DNA of 64,000 nt from Leptolyngbya sp. FACHB-60 (GTDB taxonomy: Bacteria; Cyanobacteriota; Cyanobacteriia; Phormidesmidales; Phormidesmidaceae), in assembly GCF_014695775.1 (NCBI RefSeq), contig NZ_JACJOX010000008.1:62001-126000 (forward strand). The letters run 5' to 3'. The notes under the pieces were generated by a model, which saw only the letters and a program-made list of their open reading frames with translations, ran no database searches and was not told the origin of the DNA. A program made the translations under genes and the position numbers. Shown in pieces: positions 61,270 through 64,000 of this stretch. Numbering within the stretch: position 1 is the stretch's first letter; every line of letters starts with the position of its first letter.

Positions 61270-62922
61270 TCAACTCGGCTCACGCCAAAAGGTCAGGTTT
61301 TCGCCGATTGGCTGCAACGTCGTACCGGGGTAATAGAACTGAAGAATGCGCGGATAGCTCCAGCCCAGATTACCCAGACGATAGGACCCCGCCTGGCTCA
61401 GTCCCACGGCGTGTCCCCAGCCACCGCCGACAAAGCGATAGCCGGTGAGTGGCCCCGTAGCGCCATCGGCTCCGGCGGTGTACATCGGTTCCAGGTAAAA
61501 GAGCAGGCTGCGGGGAGGCCTGAGCACCCGCACAATTTCGTCTTTTTTGAGCTGCACCACGCCCAGGTCGGTTTCGATGTCAATGGTCTGAACTCGGCCC
61601 GAGTTGGCTCGCTCGGAGACTCGCAGCGATCGCACCTGGGTAAACCCCGCCAGCGGATGCTGCCGCCGCCCCAAATATCCCTTGAGATCTGCCGTAATCT
61701 CGCTGAGAGTGCCCTCGTTGCGCCAGCGAAACAGTTGCCAGGTTTCTTCGTTAAAGCCTTTGTCGATGGCAATAAATCGCCGGATTGCCTCCTCGGAGTT
61801 AAGCGGGTACTGGTTGATATTCCACAGACCGTAGACCGAATCGACCACGGGACGCAGGTAGGGCCGGTCTGGCCCCTCCCACACGTCGCTAAAGGCGGCA
61901 GTCACTCCGCCCGAGGTAGAAGAATACAGAGCATCCACCAGCTCGTTTTGGTAGGTGAGCACCTGGCCCTGGGTGGCGGTGATGGCCTGGTCAGTCACCG
62001 GGGCGGTGCCCGTCAAACCCCGATACACCTGGCACTGGGTGTCGGCACAGAGTTCGTAGTCGTCGATCGCAAAGCGGCGCAGGTTGCGCAGGGCATAGGT
62101 GCGGGCCAGCACCGCCTGGGCCTGAATGGCTGGCACCGGGGCACCGGCCCCGATCTCGTGGGGCACTACCCCACGCAGGTAGGTTTCGATCGGCACGCTG
62201 TTAACCAGGGTATAGGTGCCGTAGGTGTTGGGCTGCACCCGCAATGTGCCGCCGTAGACACGGGTGACAGGCGGCTCGCCGGGCTGAGTGACCCGCACCC
62301 GCCCGCCGCTAGCGCGAATGTCGAGGGTGTCGCGGCCATAGCGATAGCCGTTGGCCTCAAAGTAGGTGCGGGGAATTTGGCCAACCACTTCGCTGTCGAG
62401 AAAGACTTCGGTAAACCCCTGGGCTTGCAGGTTTTTGACCAGCAGGCGGCGCACTAGGGGGCTGTCGTAGGTTTCGCGGTTGGCCCACACTTCCCAACTA
62501 TCGGGCTGAGCAATCTCGGGCTCAATGCCGCGATCGCGCCACTGCTGGGCACTGTATTCGGCGGTCTCAAAGCTGCGGTGGTTGCTGAGCACGACGCGCT
62601 CGCCCAGGGTGGCCTCGGGCAGTTGCTCGGGGGCAAGGCCGATCACAACCCGGCTGGTGGTGACGGTTTGGGGCTGGCCCTGGGTGTCAAAGCTGAGGGT
62701 GAGCTGCTCACCGGGCAGGGCTTCGAGGGTGATGCGGTCTTGCAGATTTTCGCCAAAGCGCTGCACAATGCCCACCTGAATTACCGGGTTTTGGGCAGCG
62801 GGGGCGGGTGCTGCGATGGAGGTGGTGAGGGCGATCGCAATGCCGCCCACAGCCCCCAACCATCGCGATCGCTGATGGCCTAGGGGTTGAAACTGAAATC
62901 GGGGCAGGGAGAGCGTAGCCAT
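61270..62922 (-). CDS. SpoIID/LytB-domain exported protein
   Basis: A 550-residue secreted protein. The N-terminal signal (GGIAIALTTSIAAPAPAAQ) is followed by a ~200-residue region and then the SpoIID domain: SVPIETYLRGVVPHEIGAGA, QAQAVLARTYALRNL and ALYSSTSGGVTAAFSDVWEG, ending in GGGWGHAVGLSQAGSYRLG. SpoIID-type enzymes are lytic transglycosylases acting on denuded peptidoglycan strands; many cyanobacteria encode one, so a cell-wall role is likely. Catalytic Glu in VVPHEIG is present. Confidence 0.9.
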   Translation of the reverse strand: MATLSLPRFQFQPLGHQRSRWLGAVGGIAIALTTSIAAPAPAAQNPVIQVGIVQRFGENLQDRITLEALPGEQLTLSFDTQGQPQTVTTSRVVIGLAPEQLPEATLGERVVLSNHRSFETAEYSAQQWRDRGIEPEIAQPDSWEVWANRETYDSPLVRRLLVKNLQAQGFTEVFLDSEVVGQIPRTYFEANGYRYGRDTLDIRASGGRVRVTQPGEPPVTRVYGGTLRVQPNTYGTYTLVNSVPIETYLRGVVPHEIGAGAPVPAIQAQAVLARTYALRNLRRFAIDDYELCADTQCQVYRGLTGTAPVTDQAITATQGQVLTYQNELVDALYSSTSGGVTAAFSDVWEGPDRPYLRPVVDSVYGLWNINQYPLNSEEAIRRFIAIDKGFNEETWQLFRWRNEGTLSEITADLKGYLGRRQHPLAGFTQVRSLRVSERANSGRVQTIDIETDLGVVQLKKDEIVRVLRPPRSLLFYLEPMYTAGADGATGPLTGYRFVGGGWGHAVGLSQAGSYRLGNLGWSYPRILQFYYPGTTLQPIGENLTFWREPS

Positions 62923-63022: not shown

Positions 63023-63145
63023 TTATTCTCGATGGGCAATCGTTGCTTTCATGCCTACATCCCGAATGTGAAGCGAGTTTGGAAAAAGGTCGCTCAAGCG
63101 ATTTGGCAGTTGGGGCTATAGGTTTTCACCAAAAAGTAATTTCAT
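63023..63145 (-). pseudogene. Degenerate DUF5615 PIN-like toxin gene
   Basis: Begins ATG at 63145, overlapping the DUF433 stop by ATGA as toxin genes of this family do. It reads MKLLFGENL, then an in-frame TAG, then PQLPNRLSDLFPNSLHIRDV, GMKATIAHRE and a stop. Intact DUF5615 proteins start MKLLFDENLSPxL with LxDLFPxSxHVRDVGL, so the match is unmistakable. The catalytic Asp of DENL is Gly, codon 10 is a stop, and everything after about residue 33 is lost. The toxin is therefore almost certainly inactive. Confidence 0.8.
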
Positions 63146-63372
63146 GCCGATAGAGGAGCGGTCATGAACCGACGCTCGCGGTCGGCAGCGTAGGCGATAC
63201 AGGCTTTTAGATCTTCTCTCGTCAGGTCGGGAAAGTCATCGAGAATTTCGGCTTCGGTCATCTGGGAAGCTAGGTATTCAAGCACTTCATAGACGGTGAT
63301 GCGTAAGCCGCGTACGCAAGGTTTGCCGCCGCGCTTGTTGGGTTCGATGGTGATGTAGTTTCGGTAGTCCAT
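63142..63372 (-). CDS. DUF433 antitoxin-like protein
   Basis: A 76-residue DUF433 protein: ITIEPNKRGGKPCVRGLRIT, then VYEVLEYLASQMTEAEILDD and FPDLTREDLKACIAYAADRE. These are VapB-like DNA-binding antitoxins that usually precede a DUF5615 PIN-like toxin. Here the frame is intact, but the overlapping toxin gene is broken. It lies 114 bp downstream of the Argonaute gene on the same strand and could share its transcript. Confidence 0.9.
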   Translation of the reverse strand: MDYRNYITIEPNKRGGKPCVRGLRITVYEVLEYLASQMTEAEILDDFPDLTREDLKACIAYAADRERRFMTAPLSA

Positions 63373-63486: not shown

Positions 63487-64000
63487 TTAGACAGCAATCA
63501 ACTTTTCTCGACCAATATTTTGAAGGATATTTATCTGACCAATACGCTGAAACTCCTTACTACTTTTGTCAGCTAGATGCAGTACCCAAGGCAGTCGGCA
63601 TGAACGAAAACCACTGGCAGGATGCAATTGAGTGAGATGATAAGTTTGCAAAGCTAATAATTCAAGAGGAGAATCCCCATACTCATGAACCACCCTTAGA
63701 GGCCTTACACTACCAATATTTCCAGCAGCTGCTTGGCTTGTTACCATAATAAAAGAACGTTCTTTTGGCATGAATACAGTGCTGCCAAGTTGAGCATCCC
63801 GATAAACTTTTCTTCCATCTTGCATGACTTCCTGCCCCACTCTTCCTGCCCCGCTTTTGCGTACCCCTACAAGATCTACAGAAATTCCCTGCTCCTTCAA
63901 TGCTGTTATTGTTTGGTCAAATTCTCCTGATTGAATCAATCCATCTCTCATTAACAGTATTTTTTTAGGATAGCGGTTGCAAATATTGTGAAATTTAACA
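63487..64000 (-). CDS. Prokaryotic Argonaute, C-terminal PIWI portion (gene continues beyond window)
   Basis: The minus-strand frame is open to the window edge (no stop before 63999), so only the last ~170 residues are visible. They read as the end of a PIWI domain and closely parallel T. thermophilus Ago: PKKILLMRDG (TtAgo-type RDG, third catalytic Asp), VDLVGVRKSGAGRV, LRVVHEYGDSPLELLALQTY, HLTQLHPASGF, RLPWVLHLADK (fourth catalytic Asp) and the terminal EKLIAV. The Asp-to-Asp and Asp-to-C-terminus spacings (125 and 26) agree with TtAgo (114 and 25). The terminal Val, which coordinates the guide 5' phosphate through Mg, is kept. It should be a catalytically competent DNA-guided nuclease, provided the first two catalytic residues outside the window are intact. 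Confidence 0.9.
   Translation of the reverse strand, partial: VKFHNICNRYPKKILLMRDGLIQSGEFDQTITALKEQGISVDLVGVRKSGAGRVGQEVMQDGRKVYRDAQLGSTVFMPKERSFIMVTSQAAAGNIGSVRPLRVVHEYGDSPLELLALQTYHLTQLHPASGFRSCRLPWVLHLADKSSKEFQRIGQINILQNIGREKLIAV

What the first reader, a model, noticed from the sequence alone, without database searches (positions are those of the whole stretch)
63487..64000. TtAgo-like prokaryotic Argonaute enters the window at its right edge
The last ~170 residues match a long-A Argonaute PIWI domain and keep the third and fourth catalytic aspartates (RDG and HLADK) and the C-terminal Val. It sits in an accessory patch with toxin-antitoxin debris, which fits a defence island. Cyanobacterial Agos are known, so the novelty lies in the context and in what lies upstream.
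Basis: partly seen in the sequence, partly recalled or inferred. Interest (0 to 1): 0.72.

Follow-up and report, generated by a model that had tools for sequence, protein, structure and literature searches.

The report
Cyanobacterial Argonaute at variable defence site
The gene running off the right edge of the window is a complete, probably active DNA-guided DNA-cutting Argonaute of a known cyanobacterial type. It was acquired horizontally, and it sits in a short stretch of chromosome where related species carry other anti-invader genes instead.

Summary
The open frame at 63487-63999 (-) is the last 170 residues of an intact 730-aa gene, window-equivalent 63487-65679, read from the same genome's contig. 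It matches Thermus TtAgo end to end (E 3e-65; Foldseek TM 0.78/0.84 with an AlphaFold model of pLDDT 87). It has a PAZ domain, the full catalytic tetrad D511-E545-D579-D704 aligned to TtAgo D478-E512-D546-D660, a basic MID pocket and a C-terminal Val. It is a SeAgo-clade long-A Argonaute, so a new member of a known kind. No neighbour recurs across 28 cyanobacterial Ago loci, so it probably acts alone.

The gene is foreign in composition (40% GC in a 57% GC window). Close orthologues occur in only 2 of 27 congeners. Downstream lies an orphan DUF433 antitoxin and a broken DUF5615 toxin. This genome has no multi-gene defence island here, but congeners carry other cargo between the same flanking genes, including a DRT reverse transcriptase and a HEC-01 pair: a small defence hotspot.

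The most novel by-product lies beside the gene, outside the window: a dispersed, strongly covarying structured RNA upstream of a small-protein gene in 35 of 36 copies tested, with no Rfam match.

The parts
63487..64000 (-). 3' part (last 170 codons) of a 730-aa long-A prokaryotic Argonaute; the complete gene is window-equivalent 63487-65679 (G000:C78:125487-127679)
63943..63945 (-). codon of D579, third catalytic residue (RDG), aligned to TtAgo D546
63568..63570 (-). codon of D704, fourth catalytic residue (HLADK), aligned to TtAgo D660
63142..63372 (-). DUF433 (COG2442-type) antitoxin-like gene directly downstream of Ago; kept beside Ago in the two closest relatives
63037..63145 (-). remnant of the DUF5615 (PIN-like) toxin gene: about 36 codons with an in-frame stop; start codon overlaps the DUF433 stop; the rest was lost in a deletion of about 360 bp relative to G022
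   Evidence: reading frame translated by eye
61270..62922 (-). SpoIID-domain gene: conserved left flank of the hypervariable interval (the right flank, a HEAT-repeat gene, lies outside the window at L001:8639-9307)

Best explanation
The feature is an intact, stand-alone, catalytically competent long-A Argonaute of the TtAgo/SeAgo clade. Most likely it loads short 5'-phosphorylated DNA guides that host nucleases release from replicating or broken DNA, preferentially from plasmids and other incoming DNA. It then cuts complementary DNA with its DEDD centre and so lowers plasmid maintenance and natural transformation. The gene was gained horizontally into a small variable interval between a SpoIID gene and a HEAT-repeat gene. 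In congeners that interval holds other defence or toxin-antitoxin genes. Shown here: gene integrity, domains, tetrad, fold, foreign composition, patchy distribution and swapping of cargo at the site. Inferred from characterised relatives: guide type, target type and defence role.
For: Full-length match to TtAgo, E 2.9e-65 over 7-728. PAZ_3 E 1.5e-24. PADLOC pAgo E 1e-289. Tetrad DEDD, identical in 22 of 23 cyanobacterial homologues in the tree (one DEDH), and a K-R-Q-K MID pocket. AlphaFold model pLDDT 87, pTM 0.83, best PDB matches all TtAgo, TM 0.78/0.84 to 4ncb. No recurring neighbour apart from the shared locus of the close relatives. GC 40.2% against 57.1% for the window and 56-63% for the flanking SpoIID and HEAT genes. 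Orthologues at 92-95% in only 2 of 27 congeners. In G025 Ago lies at a different place together with DUF433. Variable cargo at the same site in congeners, with a Drt6/Drt4-type RT (E 1.4e-142) and a HEC-01 pair (E 1.7e-200, 1.6e-65). Relatives: SeAgo reduces transformation and blocks RSF1010 plasmids (PMC10653904); SeAgo in E. coli binds 15-19-nt small DNAs enriched from plasmid (PMC10269773).
Against: No activity was measured. Identity to the characterised relative (taken to be G089) is about 61%, and to TtAgo about 28%. The MID pocket has K-R where TtAgo has R-K, and the loops around D511/E545 are the least confident part of the model. TtAgo has been linked to chromosome decatenation, and SeAgo and LrAgo help E. 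coli finish division under gyrase inhibition (PMC10269773), so defence need not be the main role.
Confidence: 0.85

Rival explanations
1. The Argonaute is mainly a replication and repair accessory: it completes chromosome decatenation or processes stalled forks, and any effect on plasmids is secondary.
For: TtAgo decatenates chromosomes; SeAgo and LrAgo aid division of E. coli under ciprofloxacin and are loaded from the termination region (PMC10269773).
Against: SeAgo does not protect its own host from ciprofloxacin (PMC10269773). The gene is absent from most congeners and compositionally foreign, unlike a core replication factor. It occupies a site shared with defence systems.
Confidence: 0.2
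2. The Argonaute works with a dedicated partner, the adjacent DUF433 gene, as a guide-triggered toxin-antitoxin or suicide system.
For: DUF433 lies directly downstream on the same strand in the three closest loci, including G025 where the pair sits elsewhere in the genome. G022 has a complete DUF433-DUF5615 pair there.
Against: The DUF5615 toxin is broken in this genome. The same DUF433 gene occurs at this site in congeners without Ago, so it belongs to the site rather than to Ago. Other cyanobacterial Ago loci lack it. The Ago has its own complete catalytic tetrad.
Confidence: 0.04
3. The gene is a decaying or misassembled fragment with no function.
For: The genome is a draft of 84 contigs with 5.5% estimated contamination. 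The adjacent toxin gene is a pseudogene.
Against: One open 730-codon frame without stops, all catalytic residues kept. The locus is collinear with G022 over about 16 kb at 84-92% DNA identity, and the protein is 95% identical.
Confidence: 0.02

Closest known systems
SeAgo (Synechococcus elongatus PCC 7942) and the cyanobacterial long-A clade
   Different: Host is a filamentous Nodosilinea-like lineage; PMC10653904 reported predicted active long-A pAgos in filamentous cyanobacteria only from two metagenomic sequences. Locus shared with other defence systems in the genus.
TtAgo (Thermus thermophilus)
   Same: Full-length homology, same domain order, same tetrad, same fold
   Different: About 28% identity; plasmid-borne in Thermus, chromosomal here; R418/K422 of TtAgo replaced by K449/R453
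CpAgo, CbAgo, KmAgo (Firmicute long-A Agos)
   Same: Same fold and tetrad region; weaker sequence match
   Different: E 3e-17 to 1e-7 and only over the MID/PIWI part; a different branch
DUF433-DUF5615 (COG2442-PIN) toxin-antitoxin pairs of cyanobacteria
   Same: Intact DUF433, toxin start codon overlapping the antitoxin stop. DUF433/COG2442-PIN pairs are listed as type II TA in Synechocystis (PMC4963859)
   Different: Toxin truncated to about 36 codons with an internal stop, so only the antitoxin half survives

Membership tests
long-A prokaryotic Argonaute (TtAgo/SeAgo clade) | N-PAZ-MID-PIWI architecture with a full PAZ | tested here: met
   PAZ_3 at 183-274, E 1.5e-24; full-length TtAgo sequence and fold match
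long-A prokaryotic Argonaute (TtAgo/SeAgo clade) | complete DEDX catalytic tetrad | tested here: met
   D511, E545, D579, D704 align with TtAgo D478, E512, D546, D660
long-A prokaryotic Argonaute (TtAgo/SeAgo clade) | basic MID pocket for the guide 5' phosphate, C-terminal carboxylate | tested here: met
   K449, R453, Q464, K487 at TtAgo R418, K422, Q433, K457, and C-terminal Val; K/R swapped relative to TtAgo, not the YK type
long-A prokaryotic Argonaute (TtAgo/SeAgo clade) | groups with cyanobacterial long-A Agos on a tree | tested here: met
   window + Tildeniella + Shackletoniella 100/100, with Cyanothece SIO2G6 next at 99/99; long-B and short pAgos were not in the tree
long-A prokaryotic Argonaute (TtAgo/SeAgo clade) | DNA-guided DNA cleavage | not testable with these tools
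   needs purified protein
long-B or short pAgo (SPARTA, SPARSA and similar) | inactive PIWI, lost PAZ, or an APAZ/TIR/SIR2/nuclease partner | tested here: not met
   tetrad and PAZ intact; no partner gene
CRISPR-associated MID-OH pAgo (MpAgo type) | Cas1/Cas2 neighbours | tested here: not met
   neighbours are SpoIID, DUF433, HEAT and a small-ORF element
multi-gene defence island | several defence systems clustered in this genome | tested here: not met
   PADLOC finds only Ago convincingly among the five proteins tested (the HEAT-repeat protein gives a partial repeat match)
defence hotspot (site with exchanged cargo) | conserved flanks with different defence genes in relatives | tested here: met
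   SpoIID and HEAT flanks conserved; Ago, DRT-type RT, HEC-01 pair, TA and PIN/HEPN genes in between; no matched set of other intervals was scored as a control
functional DUF433-DUF5615 TA pair | intact toxin gene | tested here: not met
   toxin truncated with an in-frame stop

The most novel reading that the evidence does not exclude
The SpoIID-HEAT interval is a genus-wide exchange site for single defence modules. Its constant right-hand element, a dispersed structured RNA with a small-protein gene that exists in up to about 60 copies per genome, is an undescribed mobile or recombination-anchoring element that helps move modules such as Ago, for example to the different location seen in G025.
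Probability: 0.1. Interest if true: 0.65.

Novelty: new member of a known kind. Interest (0 to 1): 0.35.

Why it matters
Predicted active long-A Argonautes were thought to be almost confined to unicellular cyanobacteria (PMC10653904). This one, with two 92-95% relatives in the same filamentous genus and one at 66% in a Nostoc spongiaeforme record, widens that range and gives a mesophilic DNA-guided nuclease candidate. The shared site, where congeners carry a DRT reverse transcriptase or a HEC-01 pair in place of Ago, supports Ago being used as one interchangeable defence module among several.

Tried and rejected
Dedicated partner: clustering of neighbours at 28 cyanobacterial Ago loci gave no recurring gene apart from the shared locus of close relatives. 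Phage origin: one weak hit (24% identity over a third of the protein) among 50,697 phage records. Cyanobacterial plasmid origin: the full-length plasmid hits listed are Thermus at 28-30% identity, and none of the organisms tallied by name is a cyanobacterium. PF02171 as the sole test: fails for the full-length protein and for the genome search. Direct repeats flanking Ago as insertion footprints: only chance-level pairs. Rfam assignment of the upstream element: none. The first AlphaFold run (9 sequences, pLDDT 74) was superseded by the second (22 sequences, pLDDT 87). Literature searches for a described hotspot or a described repeat of this kind found nothing relevant in the held library.

Full report
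Observation. The minus-strand frame at 63487-63999 is open to the window edge. Alone it passes the Pfam Piwi cut-off (30.6 bits). The window lies on contig C78 of genome G000 at 62001-126000, and the contig runs on for another 58 kb. Reading it gives one ATG-started frame of 730 codons, window-equivalent 63487-65679, without stops.

What it is. phmmer against the PDB matches Thermus thermophilus Argonaute over residues 7-728 at E 2.9e-65; Firmicute Agos match only the MID/PIWI part. Pfam reports PAZ_3 at 183-274, E 1.5e-24, and PADLOC a pAgo model at 960 bits. From the printed alignment the tetrad is D511, E545, D579, D704 against TtAgo D478, E512, D546, D660. The MID pocket is K449, R453, Q464, K487 against R418, K422, Q433, K457. 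A 25-sequence alignment gives DEDD in 22 of 23 cyanobacterial homologues and K-R-Q-K in most, with TtAgo R-K-Q-K. AlphaFold2 with 22 homologues reaches pLDDT 87 and pTM 0.83. Foldseek's best 33 PDB chains are all TtAgo, TM 0.78/0.84 for 4ncb_A. The Pfam Piwi model is weak here: it is not listed for the full-length protein and misses the genome, so it should not be used alone to refute.

Relatives and distribution. Among 98 genomes searched, orthologues exist in 2 of 27 congeners (95% and 92%) and in several other families at 45-71%. Named records are Tildeniella torsiva, Shackletoniella antarctica, Cyanothece SIO2G6, Nostoc spongiaeforme FACHB-130 and others; the genus corresponds to Nodosilinea-like filamentous cyanobacteria (genus placement from memory of these names). 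A tree puts the window sequence with Tildeniella and Shackletoniella (100/100) and next to Cyanothece SIO2G6. The gene has 40.2% GC against 57.1% for the window and 56-63% for the flanking SpoIID and HEAT genes; the G022 and G025 copies are about 40% too. Distribution and composition both point to horizontal gain. Two other congeners, G019 and G024, carry a different and distant pAgo that also keeps a DEDD tetrad. PMC10653904 found predicted active long-A pAgos mostly in unicellular cyanobacteria and only two metagenomic cases in filamentous ones, so these add members in filamentous hosts.

Context in this genome. Downstream on the same strand is DUF433 (63142-63372, E 6.7e-25). Its start-stop overlap leads into a DUF5615 remnant (63145-63037). 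By eye it reads MKLLFGENL*PQLPNRLSDLFPNSLHIRDVGMKATI, where G022 has the intact 110-aa MKLLFDENLSPKLPNRLSDLFPDSLHVRDVDMKATI.... A deletion of about 360 bp relative to G022 removed the rest. G022 also has a second DUF433-like gene between the pair and Ago. Other neighbours are a SpoIID protein, a HEAT-repeat protein, a 420-aa protein without a Pfam match, and HetR. No neighbour family recurs at other cyanobacterial Ago loci, so Ago is a stand-alone gene.

The site in congeners. A DNA search of the genus shows the SpoIID gene on one side and a small-ORF element plus the HEAT gene on the other kept in order, with unrelated DNA of about 1 to 7 kb in between. The next genes beyond HEAT are collinear in the congeners where the fetched stretch covers them, so the variation is local. 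Cargo by genome: G014 a reverse transcriptase, best Drt6 1.4e-142 and Drt4 7.5e-91, plus an intact DUF433-DUF5615 pair; G003 an AAA ATPase and DUF4276 protein, best HEC-01 models 1.7e-200 and 1.6e-65; G019 a ParA-like and a HEPN protein plus DUF433-DUF5615; G012 a PIN protein; G010 a transposase, an unassigned P-loop ATPase and DUF433-DUF5615; G027 nearly empty; G000 and G022 Ago. In G025 Ago and DUF433 lie elsewhere, between genes that are far apart in other congeners; that genome is a MAG, so misjoining is possible. I did not score random intervals as a control, so 'hotspot' is supported but not statistically established.

How it most likely works. By homology to SeAgo and TtAgo it should take 5'-phosphorylated small DNA guides and cut complementary DNA. 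SeAgo lowers natural transformation and stops RSF1010 plasmids being kept (PMC10653904), and in E. coli it carries 15-19-nt small DNAs enriched from plasmid (PMC10269773). Defence against incoming DNA is therefore the preferred role; a role in finishing replication is the main rival. Guide and target type are inferred, not shown.

By-product. Just upstream of Ago on the opposite strand (L001:7775-8400, outside the window) is a dispersed element. It has about 235 conserved bases followed by a small ORF (MFEYLEPDASG...). The conserved part folds well (z -4.3). A covariance model finds it in 49 of 98 genomes, up to 50 copies in one. On 36 copies from diverse genera 91.2% of cells pair, against 32-43% when slid; 34 of 50 pairs show changes on both sides, and no shuffle reaches the observed values. 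This alignment was fitted to the structure, but an independent MAFFT alignment still gives 14 of 23 predicted pairs with double changes. The small ORF follows in 35 of 36 copies and precedes in none. Its protein family is in 63 of 98 genomes, up to 61 copies. No Rfam family matches, and no Pfam family matches the ORF. This may be an undescribed RNA and small-protein element and deserves its own study.

Verdict. Its added interest is the variable defence site and the neighbouring RNA element.

Noticed in passing
L001:7775-8400 (G000:C78:127774-128399, about 1.8-2.4 kb right of the window end): Dispersed structured RNA (158-nt core, 50 pairs, strong covariation) directly upstream of a small-protein gene (MFEYLEPDASG...RVRHMLYGSLAAIDRTIKILHALGY...). 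RNA found in 49 of 98 cyanobacterial genomes with up to 50 copies, the ORF follows in 35 of 36 copies tested, no Rfam or Pfam match.
   Followed up: partly
L061:3412-5025, L064:6416-8163: At the same chromosomal site as Ago, congeners carry a Drt6/Drt4-type defence reverse transcriptase and a HEC-01-type ATPase plus DUF4276 pair.
   Followed up: partly
L066:5536-7035: 499-aa P-loop ATPase at the same site in G010 without a confident family (weak AAA_22 and DpdH matches only); possible unassigned defence gene.
   Followed up: no
L080 and L081 (NZ_DVEH01000047.1): A Thermosynechococcus MAG holds two identical Argonaute proteins about 14 kb apart on one contig.
   Followed up: no
L015 and L017 (G019, G024): Two other congeners carry a different, distant pAgo (about 28% identity in MID/PIWI) that also keeps a DEDD tetrad.
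   Followed up: partly
L088:6100-9572, L094:7980-10125: Ago is split between two ORFs in the Gloeomargaritales VI4D9 and Hyella patelloides records, possibly pseudogenes or sequencing errors.
   Followed up: no
L019:7153-7476: G022 has a second DUF433-like gene between the DUF433-DUF5615 pair and Ago; it is missing in the window genome.
   Followed up: no
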